Shown: in pieces, positions 8,199 through 60,679 of the stretch
How the letters are laid out: each line of letters opens with the position of its first letter
Numbering within the stretch: the stretch's first letter is position 1
From: Arthrobacter sp. CJ23
GTDB lineage: Bacteria; Actinomycetota; Actinomycetes; Actinomycetales; Micrococcaceae
NCBI RefSeq assembly: GCF_024741795.1
Contig: NZ_CP102950.1
Coordinates: 2,356,001-2,420,000, forward strand
Direction: 5' to 3'
Length of the DNA: 64,000 nt
Notes under the pieces: generated by a model
What the model saw: the letters and a program-made list of their open reading frames with translations, nothing else
Told to the model about the DNA's origin: nothing
Databases searched by the model: none
Position numbers and translations under genes: made by a program

Positions 8199-9092
8199 TC
8201 AGACTCCGGCGATGTGCCGGACGGCGTCCAGGTACGGCATGTTGATGGCGGCATCCGCCACGGCGCGGACGGCGGGCTTGGCGTTGAAGGCGATCCCGAT
8301 CCCTGCCGCTCCCAGCATGTCGAGGTCGTTGGCGCCGTCGCCCACGGCGATGCTGTGCTCCAGGCTGATGCCCTCGGCGGCAGCCCATTCGCGGAGGTAC
8401 TTTTCCTTCGCGGCCCGGTCGATCACGGCGCCCAGGACCTTGCCGGTCAGGACGCCGTCGACGATTTCCAGTTCGTTGGCGATCCAGTAGTCCAGGCCGA
8501 GCTGACCGGCGATCGGGCCGAGGATCTGGTTGAAGCCGCCCGATACGACAGCCACCACGTGGCCTGCGGCCTTGAACGCGGCCACCAGTTCGGCGGCGCC
8601 CAGGCTGAGGCGGACTTCCTCGCGCACGGAGTCGACGACGGCGGCGGGCAGCCCGGCCAGCACGGCCACGCGGGCGTGCAGGCTTTGGGCGAAGTCCAGT
8701 TCGCCGCGCATGGCGGCTTCGGTGACGGCCGCGACTTCCTCGCGTTTGCCGGCGTGGGCGGCGAGCAGTTCGATGACTTCCTGCTGGATGAGGGTGGAGT
8801 CGACATCCATGATGAGGAGCTTGCGCGGCGCCCCGCGCAGACCGGCAGGAACGATCGCGGTGTCCACGCCCTCGCCTGCGGCGTCGGCTACGCGACGGCG
8901 GATCTCCGCGAGGTCCGCAGCGGTGCCGCCGTCGACGGCCAGGCCGATCGTGTAGACCCCGAACCGCTCATCGCCCGAGCGGGCCTCGGACGTGAAGGAG
9001 GCCCCCACGTCGGAGAGCACCTTGCGCAGGTGTTCCAGCTCCACCGGGGACAAATTCACGCCATAGCTGACCGCAGCCAAGTTCGAAGTCAT
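8199..9092 (-). CDS. serB: Phosphoserine phosphatase SerB
   Basis: HAD-superfamily enzyme that makes serine from phosphoserine. The 297-residue protein has an N-terminal ACT-like part (about residues 1-90) and a HAD core with the nucleophile motif DVDSTLI, VSGGFN and the GDGANDLDM metal-binding motif. An upstream in-frame ATG at 9152 exists, but the ATG at 9092 is preferred because family proteins start there. TAGGAT lies 7 nt before it, consistent with a leaderless transcript, although GGGG near the start could also bind ribosomes. Confidence 0.92.
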   Translation of the reverse strand: MTSNLAAVSYGVNLSPVELEHLRKVLSDVGASFTSEARSGDERFGVYTIGLAVDGGTAADLAEIRRRVADAAGEGVDTAIVPAGLRGAPRKLLIMDVDSTLIQQEVIELLAAHAGKREEVAAVTEAAMRGELDFAQSLHARVAVLAGLPAAVVDSVREEVRLSLGAAELVAAFKAAGHVVAVVSGGFNQILGPIAGQLGLDYWIANELEIVDGVLTGKVLGAVIDRAAKEKYLREWAAAEGISLEHSIAVGDGANDLDMLGAAGIGIAFNAKPAVRAVADAAINMPYLDAVRHIAGV

Positions 9093-31591: not shown

Positions 31592-31674
31592 TGCGCGGAG
31601 GGGGACTTGAACCCCCACCCCCTTTCGAGGACTAGCACCTCAAGCTAGCGCGTCTGCCATTCCGCCACCCGCGC
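31592..31674 (-). tRNA. tRNA-Leu(GAG)
   Basis: 83-nt type II tRNA. The acceptor stem GCGCGGG pairs with TCCGCGC (one G-T pair), and A is the discriminator. The anticodon stem CTAGC/GCTAG holds the loop TTGAGGT, with anticodon GAG reading CUC/CUU leucine codons. A long variable arm (TCCTCGAAAGGGGG region) and a T-arm GGGGGTTCAAGTCCCCC follow. The 3' CCA is not encoded. Confidence 0.97.
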
Positions 31675-54343: not shown

Positions 54344-57295
54344 ATGTCCTCCATTTCCGGGTCTCCCTCACCATCAGACAGCTTCCAGGCGGCCGCGCAG
54401 CGGACCGCCGAGGCAAAGAGTCATCTTGGCGCTTTTGCCCGGACCCTGGAGTTCGAGCTGGACGACTTTCAGCGCGAGGCGTGCCGGTCCCTCCAAGAGG
54501 GCCGCGGCGTGCTGGTCGCGGCCCCGACAGGGGCCGGCAAGACCATCGTCGGCGAATTCGCCATCTACCTGGCCCTGGAACGGGGGCTTAAGGCCTTCTA
54601 CACGACGCCCATCAAGGCGCTCAGCAACCAGAAGTTCTTCGAGCTGTCGGCAAAGTACGGCTCCGGTAACGTAGGCCTTCTGACGGGCGACACCACCATC
54701 AACGGCGAGGCCCCCGTCGTCGTGATGACCACGGAAGTCCTTCGGAACATGCTGTACGCCGATTCGGCAACCCTGGGTGACTTGGGCTACGTCGTCATGG
54801 ACGAAGTCCACTACCTCGCGGACCGCTTCCGCGGGGCCGTGTGGGAGGAAGTCATCATCCACTTGCCGAGCGAGGTGCAGGTGGCATCGCTCAGTGCCAC
54901 CGTCTCCAATGCCGAGGAATTCGGTGCCTGGCTGGATACCGTCCGCGGCCACACCGACGTGATCGTCTCCGAGCACCGCCCGGTACCCCTGTGGCAGCAC
55001 GTTATGGTGGGCAAGGAAATTGTCGACCTCTTCGCCGGCGACACCAGTTTCGACGAGATCGCCCCCGAGGCCGCCGAGCCGGACGGGTCCGACCGCGCGG
55101 CTGTCATGGCGGCTGTCGCCCCTGCGGACAGCCGCGTCGGCAAGGCAAGCACCGCGCGGACGGGACAGACGCCGTCAGCCGGCCCGGAATTCGAAGTGAA
55201 CCCCGAACTCCTCTCCATGGCCCGCGCCGAAAGCCGGATGAACTTCAACGGGCGGTTCGGCCACGGCGGACGCAGCCAGCGCCGCCAGCACCGCCAGCGC
55301 GAGGAACGCAGTTCCAGCGAGCAGCGCAGCCCCGTCCGGAAGGCCAGCAGGCCCCAGGTCATCGCCAGCCTCGACCGCCAGGACCTGCTGCCCGCCATCA
55401 CCTTCATTTTTTCCCGGGCCGGCTGCGACGCCGCCGTGGCGCAATGTGCCGCTGCCGGGCTGTGGCTCACCACCGAACGCGAACAGCAGATCATCGCGCT
55501 CCGTGTAGATGAAGCCAGCCGCGAGATCCCGGCGGACGACCTCGACGTCCTCGGATTCTGGAGCTGGCGTGACGGCCTCCTGCGCGGGCTGGCAGCCCAC
55601 CACGCAGGAATGCTGCCCACGTTCAAGGAAGTCGTGGAGAAGCTCTTCGCCGACGGGCTCGTCAAGGCCGTCTTCGCCACCGAAACCCTCGCGCTCGGCG
55701 TCAACATGCCCGCCCGTTCAGTGGTGCTGGAAAAGCTGGACAAGTTCAACGGCGAAGCGCACGTCAACATCACTGCGGGGGAGTACACGCAGCTCACCGG
55801 ACGTGCTGGAAGACGCGGCATCGACGTCGAAGGCCACGCGGTGGTTCTTTGGCAGCCCGGCACGGATCCGGCTGCAGTGGCCGGTCTGGCATCCCGCCGG
55901 ACCTACCCGCTCAACTCAAGTTTCCGGCCCACTTACAACATGAGCATCAACCTGATAGCCCAGTTCGGCAGGGAGCGTGCCCGCGAAATCCTCGAATCCT
56001 CCTTCGCGCAGTTCCAGGCCGACCGTTCCGTGGTGGGACTTGCCCGCCAGGTGCGCAGCAGGGAAGAGTCCCTGGCCGGCTACGCTGAATCCATGAAGTG
56101 CCACCTTGGTGACTTCACCACGTACGCCAAGCTGCGGCGCGAACTCAGCGACGCCGAGAACCACGCGGCGCGGAACAAACAGCGGGCGCTCAAGTCCCAT
56201 GTAGGGGCTTCGCTGACGCGGCTGATCCCCGGTGATGTCATCAACCTGTCAGGGGGGCGGACCCCGGGCTACGCCGTGGTGCTGAACTCGGACGACAACG
56301 CCCGTGAGCCGCGGCCGGCGGTGCTGACGGCGGACAACCAGTTGCGCCGGATCGGCGTGCACGACGTCGACGGCCCGGTCACGCCAGTGACCCGGATCCG
56401 AATTCCGAAATCTTTCAATGCCAAGCTGCCCAAGCCCCGGCGCGACCTCGCCGCATCCCTGCGCAACGCGGTGCGCGAGGACGTGCCCAGGGTCGGACGC
56501 AGCAGCAGGAACGAGGACTTCGGGCTTGGCTCGCGGATGCCGGACCAGGAAAAGAAGATCGCCGAGCTGCGCCGGGCCCTGCGCGCCCACCCTTGCCATG
56601 GCTGCAGCGAACGCGAGGACCATGCCCGGTGGTCGGAGCGCTGGTGGAAGCTTCGCCAGGATACGGACGGGCTGGTCCGGCAGATCCAGGGCCGCACCAA
56701 CACCATCGCGAAGACTTTCGACCGAGTGTGCGACGTCTTGTCGAGCTACGGGTACCTGCAAGCAGCCGGCGGCGGCCAGCCGGCCATCAGTGCCGACGGC
56801 CAGCGCCTGCGCCGGATCTACGGCGAGAAGGACCTGCTCATCTCCCAGTCCCTCCGGCAGGGAGCCATCAACGATCTCGACGCCGCCGAGATGGCGGCGC
56901 TGGCGAGCACGCTGGTTTACCAAGCCAAACGTGAGGACCGGGGACTGCGGCCCAAGATGCCGTCCGTATCGCTGGAGACCGCCGTCGACATCGTGGTCCG
57001 TGAATGGTCCCTGCTGGAGGACACCGAAGAGCAGAACAAGCTTCCGCTGACCGGGGAGCCGGAGCTCGGCCTCATGTGGCCGATCTTCAAATGGGCCAAG
57101 GGGCGGCATCTCCAGGACGTACTCAACGGAACCGACATGGCGGCCGGTGACTTTGTCCGCTGGGCCAAGCAGGTGGTGGACCTGCTCGACCAGCTTGCCA
57201 AGGTTCCCGCGCTCGATCCGCGCGTCACCAGAATCTGCCGCGAATCGATCGACCTCATCCGCCGTGGCGTGGTGGCCTACTCCACCGTTGCCTGA
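54344..57295 (+). CDS. helY: DEAD/DEAH-box RNA helicase HelY (Ski2/Mtr4-like)
   Basis: A 983-residue superfamily II helicase. Motifs in order: Walker A APTGAGKT, the TTPIKALSNQ segment, DEVH, SLSATVSN (motif III), ALGVNMPAR (motif V) and QLTGRAGRRG (motif VI). A low-complexity, Arg/Gln/Ser-rich insert (about residues 285-345) interrupts the core between the two RecA domains. The C-terminal half is a Mtr4/Ski2-type helical domain. The role in RNA turnover is inferred from homology to Mycobacterium HelY. TAGGCT is 6 nt before the ATG, leaderless-type. Confidence 0.92.
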   Translation: MSSISGSPSPSDSFQAAAQRTAEAKSHLGAFARTLEFELDDFQREACRSLQEGRGVLVAAPTGAGKTIVGEFAIYLALERGLKAFYTTPIKALSNQKFFELSAKYGSGNVGLLTGDTTINGEAPVVVMTTEVLRNMLYADSATLGDLGYVVMDEVHYLADRFRGAVWEEVIIHLPSEVQVASLSATVSNAEEFGAWLDTVRGHTDVIVSEHRPVPLWQHVMVGKEIVDLFAGDTSFDEIAPEAAEPDGSDRAAVMAAVAPADSRVGKASTARTGQTPSAGPEFEVNPELLSMARAESRMNFNGRFGHGGRSQRRQHRQREERSSSEQRSPVRKASRPQVIASLDRQDLLPAITFIFSRAGCDAAVAQCAAAGLWLTTEREQQIIALRVDEASREIPADDLDVLGFWSWRDGLLRGLAAHHAGMLPTFKEVVEKLFADGLVKAVFATETLALGVNMPARSVVLEKLDKFNGEAHVNITAGEYTQLTGRAGRRGIDVEGHAVVLWQPGTDPAAVAGLASRRTYPLNSSFRPTYNMSINLIAQFGRERAREILESSFAQFQADRSVVGLARQVRSREESLAGYAESMKCHLGDFTTYAKLRRELSDAENHAARNKQRALKSHVGASLTRLIPGDVINLSGGRTPGYAVVLNSDDNAREPRPAVLTADNQLRRIGVHDVDGPVTPVTRIRIPKSFNAKLPKPRRDLAASLRNAVREDVPRVGRSSRNEDFGLGSRMPDQEKKIAELRRALRAHPCHGCSEREDHARWSERWWKLRQDTDGLVRQIQGRTNTIAKTFDRVCDVLSSYGYLQAAGGGQPAISADGQRLRRIYGEKDLLISQSLRQGAINDLDAAEMAALASTLVYQAKREDRGLRPKMPSVSLETAVDIVVREWSLLEDTEEQNKLPLTGEPELGLMWPIFKWAKGRHLQDVLNGTDMAAGDFVRWAKQVVDLLDQLAKVPALDPRVTRICRESIDLIRRGVVAYSTVA

Positions 57296-57332
57296 CCATT
57301 CCACTTTCCAGATTTCCCAAGGAGCAGCACGC

Positions 57333-58982
57333 ATGAACCAGCCCGGCACGCCCGGCGGCAGCACCCAGCCGCGCAAGGTGACGATGTACCGCAACGGCTC
57401 GGTCTACACCGCCGCAGACCCCTTCGCCACCGCCATGTTGGTTGACGGCGACACCGTCGCCTGGGTTGGTTCCGAGCAGGCAGCAACCTCGATCGCCGAT
57501 GCGTCCATGGATATCATCGACCTTCGTGGGGCCCTGTTGGCACCCGGCTTCGTGGACTCGCATGTCCACCTCACCGAAACCGGCATGGCCCTGGCGGGGC
57601 TGCAGCTGAGCAGTGCCCGCTCCGCCCGCGAACTGCTCGACGCCGTCGCCACTGCGCCCACTGACGGAACCGTTCTGGGCCACGGCTGGGACGAGACCAT
57701 GTGGCAGGACAGGACACTGCCGACTCCTGAAGAGCTCGGGCGCGCTGCCCGTGGCAGGCCTGTCTACCTGTCCAGGATCGACGTCCACTCCGCACTGGTG
57801 TCGCAGTCGCTTGTGGCCGCGGCCGGGCTGGACGGCATGGATGGCTTCGACGGCGGAACGCAGGTGGTGCGTGCGGCACACACGGCTGCCCGGCTGGCTG
57901 CGCGGCAACTGCCCGAGGCAGACCGCCGCGGCTACCAAGGCGCGGCCCTCCGCGAAGCCGCTGCAAACGGATATGTTGCGGTCGCTGAAATGTCGGCGCC
58001 GCATATTTGCAGCACCGACGACCTGCGCATGGCTGCATCCTGGAACGACGGCGGCGCCATGCCCGAGGTCCTGCCCTATTGGGGCGAGCTGGCCACCTCT
58101 TCCGGGCACGCACAGAGCATTCTGGATGGCCTGGGCACGCCCGTCCTCGGACTCGCCGGAGACCTCAACATCGATGGTTCCATCGGCTCGAGGACTGCAG
58201 CACTCCGGGAAGACTACAGCGATGCCGCGGGCCATCGGGGCAGCCTGTACCTTTCCGTGGATGACGCTGCCAAACACCTGGCAGCCTGTTCCGTGCTGGG
58301 GATTCAGGCCGGCTTCCACGTCATCGGCGACGCCGGCCTCGAAGCTGCGCTGGATGCGCTCGATCTGGCCGCCGCCGAGGCGGGCGAGCAGCGGGTCCGA
58401 GCTGCCGGCCACCGCTTCGAACACGTCGAGATGGCCAGCTCCGCGGCGCTGGAGCGTCTGGCGACGTACTCCGTCACGGTCAGTGCCCAGCCGGCCTTCG
58501 ACGCCGTGTGGGGGACCCCCGGCGGGCTGTATGAGCAGCGGCTGGGGGAGCGCAGCAGGGAGATGAACCCCTTCGCCGCCTTCTACTCGAAGGGTGTCCC
58601 GGTGGCCTTCGGCAGCGACAGCCCCGTCACGCCGCTGCGTCCCTGGTCCAGTGTCCGCGCGTGCCTGGAACACAACAACCCGGAGCAGCGCATTTCCGCA
58701 CGGGCGGCGTTCCTGGGACACACACGGGCGGGCTGGCGCGCCAGCAAGTACCGGAATCCGCTCATGGGCCAGCTGGTGCCCGGGGCACCGGCCAGCTTTG
58801 CCGTGTGGGAAGTGGAAGAGCTCATGGTCCAGGTGGCAGACAACCGCGTGCAGTCCTGGAGCACCGATCCGCGGGCGCGTACGCCCCTGCTGCCGGCTCT
58901 CGATACCGGCAACGACCCCGCCTGCCTGCAGACGGTCCGCGAAGGCCAGGAGCTCTTCGCCAGCCCCGCACTGCGAGGCTGA
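57333..58982 (+). CDS. Amidohydrolase family protein (YtcJ-like)
   Basis: A 549-residue metal-dependent hydrolase of the amidohydrolase superfamily. Metal-ligand motifs: PGFVDSHVHLTETG near the N-terminus, HVIGDAG, a later His region (HRFEHVEM) and the Asp in AFGSDSPV. The carboxy part matches YtcJ-type proteins. The substrate is unknown. The ATG at 57333 follows AAGGAGCAGCACGC. It is 37 nt after helY. A weak hairpin (gagctggg/cccagctc, 59052-59081) lies downstream. Confidence 0.87.
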   Translation: MNQPGTPGGSTQPRKVTMYRNGSVYTAADPFATAMLVDGDTVAWVGSEQAATSIADASMDIIDLRGALLAPGFVDSHVHLTETGMALAGLQLSSARSARELLDAVATAPTDGTVLGHGWDETMWQDRTLPTPEELGRAARGRPVYLSRIDVHSALVSQSLVAAAGLDGMDGFDGGTQVVRAAHTAARLAARQLPEADRRGYQGAALREAAANGYVAVAEMSAPHICSTDDLRMAASWNDGGAMPEVLPYWGELATSSGHAQSILDGLGTPVLGLAGDLNIDGSIGSRTAALREDYSDAAGHRGSLYLSVDDAAKHLAACSVLGIQAGFHVIGDAGLEAALDALDLAAAEAGEQRVRAAGHRFEHVEMASSAALERLATYSVTVSAQPAFDAVWGTPGGLYEQRLGERSREMNPFAAFYSKGVPVAFGSDSPVTPLRPWSSVRACLEHNNPEQRISARAAFLGHTRAGWRASKYRNPLMGQLVPGAPASFAVWEVEELMVQVADNRVQSWSTDPRARTPLLPALDTGNDPACLQTVREGQELFASPALRG

Positions 58983-59090
58983 ACCCGCCAGTGCAGTCCC
59001 CGCCATGAGCGTTCCATCCAAGGGCAATTTCCGCCCGGACAAGCAGCCTCTGAGCTGGGACGATACACGTTGCCCCAGCTCACGGGCTGG

Positions 59091-59118
59091 TTGACAGTTC
59101 CCGTCAAGTCCGTAGCAT
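59091..59118 (+). promoter_or_regulatory. Strong promoter (TTGACA-N16-TAGCAT)
   Basis: TTGACA at 59091-59096 is an exact -35 consensus. TAGCAT at 59113-59118 fits the actinobacterial -10 pattern TAnnnT with a 16-nt spacer. It points toward the structured region and would start transcripts near 59125. Confidence 0.7.
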
Positions 59119-59226
59119 TGAGGCTCTACGGATGGTCCCGGGGTGAATATCCGGGCATCCGGCCGCCGTCGGATCCTCCCGCCACCTGTGCCGGTGGATC
59201 CTCGATTCCATGGTCGCGGCATGCAG

Positions 59227-59318
59227 TGTGGGCAGGTCCATAAGGTTCTAGAAAACAGTTCGTCCGGCACGCAGCACGTCCGGATCCAACTGGTCCTGGA
59301 CTTGTGGACCTGCCCGCA
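59227..59318 (+). ncRNA. Candidate structured non-coding RNA
   Basis: A 92-nt hairpin whose basal stem has 18 base pairs (59227-59244 with 59301-59318; two G-T pairs, rest Watson-Crick). Above it lie an internal loop of 11 and 8 nt, a 5-bp stem (cagtt/aactg), a small loop, and a tccgg/ccgga stem. The arrangement of paired stem, internal loop and terminal stem loosely recalls 6S/Ms1-type RNAs, but no family could be assigned. It lies about 100 nt downstream of the promoter above. Could instead be part of a long 5' leader or terminator of unknown type. Confidence 0.55.
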
Positions 59319-59348
59319 ACATGCCGGTGCTGCGTAGCTTCGGCATGT
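59319..59348 (+). terminator. Short hairpin following the structured RNA
   Basis: acatgccg at 59319-59326 pairs with cggcatgt at 59341-59348, giving an 8-bp stem with a 14-nt loop. It follows the 92-nt structure directly and could end its transcript; the U-tract is absent. Confidence 0.4.
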
Positions 59349-59389
59349 GGCAGGCACCACAGCTAGCGGGAGGCCGCCTTCCTTCGTCC

Positions 59390-59395
59390 TATAAT
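59390..59395 (+). promoter_or_regulatory. -10 element of the mannosyltransferase gene
   Basis: TATAAT in the context cgtcctataatggaga is a perfect -10 consensus. No good -35 was seen at the proper distance. It would give a leader of about 68 nt before the TTG start at 59470. Confidence 0.6.
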
Positions 59396-59469
59396 GGAGA
59401 GTTGCGCCAGAATGCCAGCCCCATGGCTGCTCCGGCACACTGACCGCTCCATCAAGGAAAGGCCTCTTC

Positions 59470-60213
59470 TTGCGTGTCCTGACGATCATTCCCACCTACA
59501 ACGAGCTGGAATCCCTGCCGATAACCCTCGGAAGGCTGCGAGCCGCGGTGCCCGCCTCCGACGTCCTGGTGGTTGATGACAACAGCCCCGACGGTACTGG
59601 GCGGCTCGCGGACAGCATTGCCGCCGAGGACAGCCAGGTCCATGTACTGCACCGAAAGGGCAAGGAAGGCCTGGGTGCCGCGTACATCGCAGGATTCAGG
59701 TGGGGCCTTGCCGCCGGCTACGACGTCTTGGTCGAAATGGACGCCGACGGTTCGCACCAGCCGGAACAGCTGCCACTGCTCCTGGACGCCATCAACGACG
59801 GCGCCGACCTCGCCATGGGCTCCCGCTGGGTGCCAGGCGGCAGCGTGGTCAACTGGCCGCTGTACCGCCAAGCAATCTCCCGGATCGGCAGCACCTATTC
59901 ACGGATCATGCTCGGCATGAAAATCAAGGACGTTACGGGCGGATACCGTGCCTTCCGGCGCAGCACACTTGAAGCACTCAAGCTGGACGAGGTTGAGTCG
60001 GTTGGCTACGGCTTTCAGGTGGACCTCGCCTGGCGTGTGGCGAAGCTCGGCCTGAAGATCGAAGAGCGTCCCATCACCTTCGTGGAGCGTGAACTGGGCG
60101 CATCCAAGATGAGCGGAAACATTGTTGTCGAGGCCATGATCAACGTCACGAGGTGGGGTCTCGCCGCACGCTGGGCAAAGCTGACCGGCCGCAAGACCCC
60201 GGTGGCCAAGTAG
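59470..60213 (+). CDS. Polyprenol monophosphomannose synthase (Ppm-like GT2)
   Basis: A 247-residue GT2 enzyme that transfers mannose from GDP-mannose to polyprenyl phosphate, giving the donor for lipoglycan and protein mannosylation. Motifs: IIPTYNELESL, the metal-binding VDDNSPDGT, VEMDADGSHQPEQ and DVTGGYRAFR. There is no membrane domain, so it resembles the catalytic domain of Mycobacterium Ppm1 without the N-acyltransferase part. The start is a TTG, because a GTG nearby runs into a stop; GGAAAGG lies about 7 nt upstream. Confidence 0.9.
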   Translation: MRVLTIIPTYNELESLPITLGRLRAAVPASDVLVVDDNSPDGTGRLADSIAAEDSQVHVLHRKGKEGLGAAYIAGFRWGLAAGYDVLVEMDADGSHQPEQLPLLLDAINDGADLAMGSRWVPGGSVVNWPLYRQAISRIGSTYSRIMLGMKIKDVTGGYRAFRRSTLEALKLDEVESVGYGFQVDLAWRVAKLGLKIEERPITFVERELGASKMSGNIVVEAMINVTRWGLAARWAKLTGRKTPVAK

Positions 60214-60331: not shown

Positions 60332-60679
60332 TTAGGCCGAGCGGCGTTCCCCACGGCGTTCGCGGAGGATGTTCAGGCGGTCCTCGAGGATGGTCTCCAG
60401 CTCCGGAAGGCTGCGGCGTTCCAGCAGCATGTCCCAGTGGGTGCGGACAGCCTTCTCGTTGGCGTCAACCGGGCGTTCGCCGTCCACCAGGAGGGCTTCC
60501 TTGCCGGTCTTGGAAACCCAGACAGGAGGGATTTCGGCTTCGGCGGAGAAAGTGACGAAGACCTGCTCGCCGTCCTCGCAGCGGTATTCGACCCGCTGGC
60601 GCGGTGCCGGCTCCACACCGGATTCGGTTTCCATGCTCTGGGCGCCAAGGCGCATACCCCGCAGGCTGCGATCGCTCAT
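60332..60679 (-). CDS. rbpA: RNA polymerase-binding protein RbpA
   Basis: A 115-residue actinobacterial transcription factor that binds the sigma factor and beta-prime subunit and stabilises the initiation complex. The sequence starts MSDRSLRGMRLGAQSMETE and shows the YRCEDGEQVFVTFSAEAEIP core, PVWVSKTGKEA and an Arg-rich C-terminal segment (RTHWDMLLERRS). The ATG at 60679 follows GAGGAG. Its promoter (60838-60867) implies a leader of about 150 nt, long for this window. Confidence 0.96.
   Translation of the reverse strand: MSDRSLRGMRLGAQSMETESGVEPAPRQRVEYRCEDGEQVFVTFSAEAEIPPVWVSKTGKEALLVDGERPVDANEKAVRTHWDMLLERRSLPELETILEDRLNILRERRGERRSA

What the first reader, a model, noticed from the sequence alone, without database searches (positions are those of the whole stretch)
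59091..59348. Undescribed structured RNA downstream of a strong promoter
The largest gene-free interval holds TTGACA-N16-TAGCAT, then a 92-nt hairpin with an 18-bp basal stem (59227-59244 with 59301-59318), an asymmetric internal loop, upper stems, and a second 8-bp hairpin directly after it. A stem this long is unlikely by chance. There is no reading frame to explain it. The stem / bubble / stem outline loosely resembles 6S or Ms1 regulatory RNAs, but sequence features of those families were not recognised. Pairings were found by eye.
Basis: partly seen in the sequence, partly recalled or inferred. Interest (0 to 1): 0.72.

Follow-up and report, generated by a model that had tools for sequence, protein, structure and literature searches.

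The report
Unlisted RNA gene widespread in Actinomycetota
The hairpin is the best-preserved part of a single-copy non-coding RNA gene, absent from the Rfam catalogue, that is found in many actinobacteria from Arthrobacter-like species to Streptomyces, usually just in front of the same cell-envelope genes; what it does is not known.

Summary
Observation confirmed. The promoter and 18-bp stem lie where stated; the hairpin folds far better than shuffles (z -7.55). It is the core of a conserved RNA family. Models grown from 14 congeners match 149 of 295 genomes of the family, 147 of 296 of the class and four genomes outside the class, nearly always once. Stems covary (20 of 22 pairs with two-sided changes); G-U 105 against A-C 6 makes the + strand the RNA. 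One internal loop is nearly fixed: YAGANAAC facing GGNCCGAAG (GGUCCUGG here). The gene has its own promoter (97 of 119 loci; shuffles 0.05) and an upstream palindrome. lnt or ppm1 follows in 57 of 58 loci, but the RNA is inverted in three others, so it is not simply a leader. Rfam 15 has no match. 6S and Y-RNA readings failed their tests; Ms1 has a different published context and was not tested by sequence. Best reading: an independent, trans-acting, protein-docking RNA, partner unknown; no transcript was seen. The second hairpin is not conserved.

The parts
59051..59082 (.). upstream inverted repeat TGAGCTGG...CCAGCTCA (relatives: TGACCTGC-N12-22-GCAGGTCA), likely regulator-binding site
   Evidence: in the window; seen before the -35 in relatives, with mismatched arms in some; both arms within 2 mismatches in 60 of 97 loci that have the promoter, against 7 of 97 in one round of shuffling; 53 perfect sites in 1.65 Mb of fetched, partly overlapping loci, each beside a -35-like TTGA[CG]
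59091..59118 (+). sigma-A type promoter TTGACA-N16-TAGCAT
   Evidence: 16-nt spacer in 14 of 14 congeners that have the hairpin; 97 of 119 loci from named contigs have TTGACN-N16-19-TANNNT upstream, against 0.05 in shuffles
59125..59226 (+). 5' domain of the RNA (start at about 59125 is inferred), folds locally, variable; nearly absent in one congener (L023)
59227..59318 (+). conserved 3' hairpin, core of the family (basal stem 59227-59244 with 59301-59318)
59249..59256 (+). 5' side of the near-fixed internal loop, UAGAAAAC (family: YAGANAAC)
   Evidence: conserved columns
59292..59299 (+). 3' side of the internal loop, GGUCCUGG here (GGNCCGAAG in most other genera)
59390..59395 (+). TATAAT -10 box of the downstream ppm1-like gene, present also in 15 of 15 congeners with a short interval lacking the RNA
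59470..60213 (+). ppm1-like glycosyltransferase family 2 gene; ppm1 or lnt is the usual downstream neighbour
57147..58982 (+). amidohydrolase ORF upstream (start codon not certain), frequent but not constant neighbour
60332..60679 (-). rbpA, convergent, frequent neighbour

Best explanation
It is an independent non-coding RNA gene, transcribed on the + strand from its own sigma-A type promoter at 59091-59118 (start near 59125) to about the end of the long hairpin near 59318, so roughly 200 nt here and about 260 nt in Streptomyces. Shown by computation: conserved promoter, conserved structure with covariation, near-fixed internal loop, normally one copy per genome, spread through about half of the sampled class and into other classes. 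Inferred: that it is transcribed; that the upstream palindrome is the site of a regulator of this gene; that the 17-18 bp stem ends and protects the transcript; and that the internal loop YAGANAAC / GGNCCGAAG is the working site and docks a conserved protein, so that the RNA acts in trans as a decoy or scaffold of a ribonucleoprotein. The protein is unknown. Its place before lnt/ppm1 is read as an old gene order, not as the way it works.
For: Covariation in the family (20 of 22 pairs with two-sided changes, 95.4% of cells paired, score 0.419 against 0.218 shuffled and at most 0.093 slid) and in a class-wide set (25 of 30 pairs, 0.404 against 0.219 and at most 0.202). G-U 105 to A-C 6. Own promoter. 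Independence from the downstream gene: in three f36 genomes the RNA lies on the strand opposite to lnt and the amidohydrolase (L275, L276, L280; strands), in L280 with a TTGACA...TACGGT promoter on its own strand; in three f31 genomes lnt begins 1.3-2.4 kb away (L270, L271, L282). ppm1 keeps its TATAAT box in 15 of 15 congeners whose interval is short and lacks the RNA. In L023 the 5' domain is almost gone and the hairpin starts 10 nt after the -10 box, so the hairpin is the core. One copy in this genome. The fixed bases sit inside an internal loop on both strands while the stems drift, the pattern of a protein or ligand site rather than of an antisense seed (inference).
Against: No transcript was seen: no RNA data could be searched here. 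No partner is identified. The usual place before lnt/ppm1 (57 of 58 loci; 100 of 104 loci with enough sequence), while the upstream neighbour changes (amidohydrolase found in 26 of 58), is what a cis-acting element would show. Promoters were not recognised for two of the three inverted copies (L275, L276), nor for 22 of 119 loci. Half of the sampled class (149 of 296) gave no match, by loss or by divergence; 15 congeners lack it at this place and one of these, G001, has no match anywhere, so it is not essential.
Confidence: 0.55

Rival explanations
1. A 6S/Ms1-like RNA that binds RNA polymerase: a stem, bubble and stem that mimics an open promoter, the RNAP-binding RNA of Micrococcaceae, where none has been shown.
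For: Stem / internal loop / stem outline; about 200-260 nt; single copy. PMC11077062 (abstract, passages and section 26 read) expects an unidentified abundant RNAP-binding RNA in Micrococcus luteus.
Against: No 6S match in the genome at E up to 10. The loop is short (9 and 7 nt) and almost fixed in sequence. RIP-seq in S. coelicolor is reported to show scr3559 (Ms1) and scr0792 as its RNAP-associated RNAs, although 47 of 80 listed loci with this RNA are Streptomyces; whether S. coelicolor itself has it was not checked by name.
Confidence: 0.15
2. A cis-acting leader or attenuator of lnt/ppm1: the long hairpin ends transcription unless a factor binds the loop, and read-through feeds the envelope genes.
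For: Same-strand position before lnt or ppm1 (57 of 58; 100 of 104), steadier than the upstream neighbour (26 of 58); in some genera the stem is followed by a U-rich stretch (L047) or itself ends in CCUUUUCC (L099).
Against: Inverted relative to lnt in three genomes and 1.3-2.4 kb away in three; a promoter for the downstream gene lies after the hairpin (TATAAT; elsewhere -10-like boxes near a possible leaderless start, read by eye); distance to the gene varies from 36 to 447 nt; the hairpin is kept in L023 without the 5' domain that an antiterminator would need.
Confidence: 0.15
3. A base-pairing sRNA that regulates mRNAs in trans, with the 5' domain as seed and the hairpin as stabiliser.
For: Own promoter, stable 3' hairpin, variable 5' domain.
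Against: The most conserved bases are on both strands of an internal loop closed by a 17-bp stem, not in an open seed; the 5' domain is nearly deleted in L023. No target search was done.
Confidence: 0.1
4. Only a terminator, repeat or DNA element (palindrome) with no RNA function.
For: Long GC-rich inverted repeat between two genes; both strands fold well.
Against: One copy in the genome; G-U 105 to A-C 6, a strand-specific signal; near-fixed loop; promoter conserved with it.
Confidence: 0.03

Closest known systems
Ms1 RNA (MTS2823, scr3559), actinobacterial core-RNAP-binding RNA (PMC9130861: abstract, passages, sections 16, 18, 19, 22)
   Same: Actinobacterial, intergenic, structured, 200-300 nt, kept in a fixed gene order over great distances.
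   Different: Published neighbours are a HAD hydrolase with an oxidoreductase or others, not lnt/ppm1/amidohydrolase. The one HAD-IB hydrolase above cut-off in this genome is at another locus; two weaker ones exist, one of them in this window at about 8283-8813. No Ms1 sequence or model was at hand, so kinship by sequence was not tested.
6S RNA (RF00013)
   Same: Long stem with an internal bubble.
   Different: No match in this genome at E 10, while 8 of 14 control genomes ring; loop short and nearly fixed in sequence.
CoRP RNA of Corynebacterium (PMC11077062, passages)
   Same: Actinobacterial structured RNA that earlier 6S/Ms1 searches had missed.
   Different: 516 nt, lies among tRNA genes, close homologues reported only in Corynebacterium; here about 200 nt, before lnt/ppm1.
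Rfam 'Lnt' motif (RF01711)
   Same: Named for lnt.
   Different: Listed from Chlorobi as probably cis-regulatory (PMC2864571, passages); it does not appear among the matches.
Y RNA / Ro (TROVE) ribonucleoprotein
   Same: GGUCCGA on one strand of a stem (likeness recalled, from no call).
   Different: TROVE proteins found in 0 of 39 genomes, this one included.

Membership tests
6S RNA (RF00013) | match to the covariance model | tested here: not met
   no match in the whole genome at E <= 10; none in the window or the interval
6S RNA (RF00013) | binds sigma-A holoenzyme and templates product RNA | not testable with these tools
   needs RIP-seq or in vitro binding; indirect: scr3559 and scr0792 are the RNAP-associated RNAs reported in S. 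coelicolor
Ms1 | gene order beside HAD-IB hydrolase | tested here: not met
   neighbours are amidohydrolase, ppm1-like, rbpA; the HAD-IB hydrolase above cut-off is at G000:C1:3682021
Ms1 | sequence/structure homology to Ms1 | not tested
   no Ms1 sequence or model was fetched
Any Rfam 15 family | score at or above gathering | tested here: not met
   window: only a tRNA at 31592-31674; 18 loci, 0 matches
Any Rfam 15 family | weak match up to E 5-10 that might show remote kinship | tested here: not met
   (the interval, 9 family loci, one Streptomyces-like and one other class locus): 25 matches in all, each far below its gathering score, many to microRNA models
Y RNA / Ro | TROVE-domain partner in the genome | tested here: not met
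   0 of 39 genomes; one of 14 control genomes rings
cis-regulatory leader of lnt/ppm1 | same strand, directly upstream of the gene | tested here: inconclusive
   met in 57 of 58 and 100 of 104; among 20 loci chosen as odd or weak, inverted in 3, 1.3-2.4 kb away in 3, no lnt/ppm1 seen in 4
structured RNA in general | paired changes in the stems beyond controls | tested here: met
protein-coding gene | conserved reading frame | tested here: not met
   hairpin lengths 81, 84, 86, 87 nt in 14 congeners and 67-132 nt for the best hit of each locus, not in steps of three

The most novel reading that the evidence does not exclude
An ancient Actinomycetota ribonucleoprotein RNA: present before the class split from its sisters, kept as one copy under a dedicated regulator site, with a new loop motif (YAGANAAC / GGNCC[GC]AA) that binds an undiscovered, widely conserved protein, in the rank of 6S, raiA or OLE RNA but of another kind.
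Probability: 0.4. Interest if true: 0.9.

Novelty: categorically new. Interest (0 to 1): 0.8.

Why it matters
Actinomycetota hold the antibiotic producers and important pathogens, and 6S RNA has not been found in them (PMC9130861, abstract). A structured RNA gene kept with its promoter, palindrome and loop over this range, and absent from Rfam 15, points to a shared function that, as far as I could search, nobody has described. The alignment, the loop motif and single-copy loci in tractable Streptomyces make it directly testable. If it proved to bind RNA polymerase it would fill the gap that PMC11077062 predicts for relatives of Micrococcus; if not, it opens another RNA-protein complex.

Tried and rejected
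6S: model search of the genome, nothing. Y RNA: suggested by a recalled GGUCCGA likeness; TROVE in 0 of 39 genomes. Ms1 at its usual neighbour: the interval after the HAD-IB hydrolase (L065) is conserved (39 of 39 relatives) and folds with z -3.0, but the part shared with other families (L065 about 2378-2475) looks by eye like a small basic protein gene on the other strand; no Ms1 was shown or excluded there. Leader/riboswitch: seriously considered because of the downstream neighbour; lowered by inverted and distant copies. Bulged-G (loop E, AGUA/GAA) reading of the loop: fits many copies but not those with CUAG, UUAG or GCAG; dropped as a general description. Second hairpin: not conserved (by eye). 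R1 over the order gave 9 of 248, all in the home family, a limit of that model, as R2 and R3 then showed. Antisense: 9 of 49 matches were weak matches (23-31 bits) to the opposite strand of the same hairpins and one lay elsewhere in L037, as an inverted repeat will give. Weak hit L092 (25 bits) lacks the loop and lnt/ppm1: counted as the one miss in 58. Of 20 further loci, L266, L267, L273 and L277 show no lnt/ppm1 in the piece fetched; L273 resembles L272 in the hairpin, L266, L267 and L273 have a promoter-like site, and that of L277 is only 3 nt before the hairpin and doubtful. Literature: searches for SCO1423/scr1423, Rv2051c with sRNA, scr1422/scr1424/SCO1424, and ppm1 with lnt and small RNA gave no sRNA here; supplementary tables (such as Table S3 of Moody 2013, PMC3765725, of which I read passages and part 1 of section 7) could not be read, so the transcript may be listed there.

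Limits and rows left out: models were calibrated on short random sequence, so E-values are rough; scans over 40 genomes used stricter filters. The structure counted was taken from the fold of one member (L042), that from the consensus fold of the same alignment; both lean towards the data. A8 holds 45 of 50 class loci (L086, L089, L092, L098, L124 left out) plus 6 family loci. L094 was left out of the 58 as a second cut of the genome of L077. A7 holds 94 matches from 97 sources. R3 was trained on part of the class hits, which match by construction; R2, trained on the home family only, had found 76 of the same 296 at E 0.1. My shuffles are first-order resamplings, 20 rounds for the promoter and one for the palindrome. 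The 119 contig loci were found by an exact loop pattern and are not an even sample; 80 are named in the answer.

Full report
What is in the window. The interval 58983-59469 lies between an amidohydrolase ORF (Amidohydro_3) and a family-2 glycosyltransferase of ppm1 type, followed by a convergent rbpA. It holds TTGACA-N16-TAGCAT (59091-59118), the only promoter-like site in 58950-59600 (0.1 expected), preceded by an inverted repeat. The hairpin 59227-59318 folds at -56.8 kcal/mol with z -7.55 (fold of 59224-59321). Rfam 15 finds nothing in the interval at gathering score and only two matches far below it at E up to 10.

Relatives in the genus. A DNA search of 59 relatives matched 32, in most of them only the start of ppm1. 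Of the 30 loci fetched, 14 have a long interval and all 14 carry, in order, the inverted repeat (arms imperfect in some), TTGACA-N16-TAGCAT, a variable stretch and the hairpin with AGAAAAC on one side and ACUGGNCC on the other. Fifteen have a short interval (92-150 nt) without the RNA but with the same TATAAT box before ppm1; in the last, L013, no amidohydrolase was found. In L023 the hairpin follows the -10 box by only 10 nt: the hairpin is the core.

The family. Model R1 from the 14 hairpins hit 99 of 295 genomes of the family, once each, in 12 of 32 genera. All 19 loci examined from other genera (L042-L060) have ppm1 nearby, 18 of 19 the amidohydrolase, and 18 of 19 a promoter of the pattern used. 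In a MAFFT alignment of 42 hairpins, 20 of 22 pairs have changes on both sides, 95.4% of cells pair, and covariation is 0.419 against 0.218 in shuffles (0 of 500 as high) and at most 0.093 when slid. G-U cells number 105 and A-C cells 6, so the + strand is the RNA. R2 from these found 149 of 295 genomes, 18 of 32 genera, with three genomes showing two matches.

The class and beyond. R2, trained on the home family alone, gave 76 of 296 genomes of the class at E 0.1. I examined 58 loci, 50 from the class sample and 8 (L128-L135) from the home family, and read the hairpins. The internal loop is the constant part: YAGANAAC (mostly UAGACAAC outside the home family) against GGNCCGAAG, with exceptions such as GGUACGAAG and the home genus itself. 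The pairs that close it and one G-C pair possible within it never vary in 51 sequences, apart from one U-A for C-G. That class-wide alignment gives 25 of 30 pairs with two-sided changes, 82.1% of cells paired, covariation 0.404 against 0.219 shuffled (0 of 500 as high) and at most 0.202 slid; the number of pairs with two-sided changes alone was reached by 12 of 500 shuffles. R3 (94 sequences) found 147 of 296 genomes and 65 of 114 genera, three of them with two matches. In a phylum sample 14 of 178 matched; ten belong to the class and four do not. Two of these four (L268, L269, weak scores) keep amidohydrolase, RNA and lnt in order; the other two (L266, L267) have a TTGACA promoter but no lnt/ppm1 in the fetched piece; these four read CCCAA where the class has CCGAA on the 3' side (by eye).

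Its own gene. Among the 119 loci, 97 have TTGACN-N16-19-TANNNT within 420 nt upstream, against 0.05 on average in shuffles; 3 of the 119 had less than 300 nt upstream. Both arms of the palindrome lie within two mismatches in 60 of these 97 against 7 in a shuffle. Perfect TGACCTGC-N12-22-GCAGGTCA sites occur 53 times in 1.65 Mb of fetched, partly overlapping loci and each has TTGA[CG] close by. In Streptomyces-type loci the predicted RNA is about 260 nt from start to hairpin end, and 40 of 67 sequences fold to a consensus of -197.5 kcal/mol (not tested for covariation outside the hairpin).

Gene order. In 57 of 58 loci an lnt or ppm1 match begins 36-447 nt downstream on the same strand; the miss is a 25-bit hit that I take as false. 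The amidohydrolase was seen upstream in 26 of 58 (six loci had only 1.5 kb of flank). Among the 119 contig loci, 100 of 104 with at least 700 nt downstream have lnt (54) or ppm1 (46) within 900 nt; two are farther, two show none, and 15 had too little sequence. One lnt was confirmed by NCBIfam above cut-off. The ppm1 label rests on the GT2 family and on kinship by place; S. coelicolor Ppm1 is SCO1423 (PMC5882110, passages). Among 20 further loci, chosen as weak or odd, 16 show lnt or ppm1. In three of family f36 (L275, L276, L280) the RNA is on the opposite strand, in L280 with a promoter 172 nt before the hairpin; another f36 locus, L117, has the usual order. In three of f31 lnt begins 1.3-2.4 kb away (L270, L271, L282). 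A leader cannot be inverted and stay a leader, so I take the RNA as an independent gene whose neighbourhood is old.

What it may do. The evidence gives a likely gene and a site, not a function. The fixed bases sit on both strands of one internal loop, which suggests a docking site. RNAP is a natural suspect, because the authors of the RIP-seq study expect unknown RNAP-binding RNAs, naming Micrococcus luteus (PMC11077062). Against it, their S. coelicolor section names only scr3559 and scr0792, and 6S does not match. Ro protein is absent from the 39 genomes searched. I commit to a trans-acting, protein-docking RNA with unknown partner at 0.55.

Novelty. No Rfam family matches the window interval or the relatives searched. 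The Rfam 'Lnt' motif is a Chlorobi element. Text searches for an sRNA at this place found none, in a library without most subscription papers and with no supplementary tables. A transcript-mapping study of S. avermitilis (PMC8780764, passages) reports 139 sRNA units of which two matched Rfam, so this RNA may sit unnamed in such a list. The family, its reach and its loop are undescribed in what I could search; I therefore rate it as a new kind of RNA rather than a member of 6S, Ms1 or CoRP.

Noticed in passing
59051-59082; L271, L077, L042 upstream of the -35: A palindrome CTGACCTGC-N-GCAGGTCAG precedes the promoter in many families of the class, as if one dedicated regulator controls this RNA.
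   Followed up: partly
L003-L005, L010, L011, L018-L022, L025, L026, L028-L030: Fifteen congeners have the same gene order without the RNA and with a short interval: loss within the genus, useful for comparing gene content.
   Followed up: no
L275, L276, L280: RNA gene inverted between amidohydrolase and lnt in part of one family (f36); in L280 a small membrane protein ORF, by eye like a small multidrug resistance protein, lies between RNA and lnt.
   Followed up: partly
59347-59360; L002-L007: A short GTGGC...GCCAC repeat before ppm1 recurs in several congeners, with and without the RNA (by eye).
   Followed up: no
L132 2998-3129: A copy with a long A/U-rich insertion in the apical part of the hairpin while the internal loop is kept.
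   Followed up: no
L065 about 2378-2475 (own genome, after the HAD-IB hydrolase): About 98 nt conserved in relatives from other families, by eye probably a tiny basic protein gene on the minus strand.
   Followed up: partly
window 31592-31674, minus strand: A tRNA gene, the only Rfam match of the window at gathering score.
   Followed up: no
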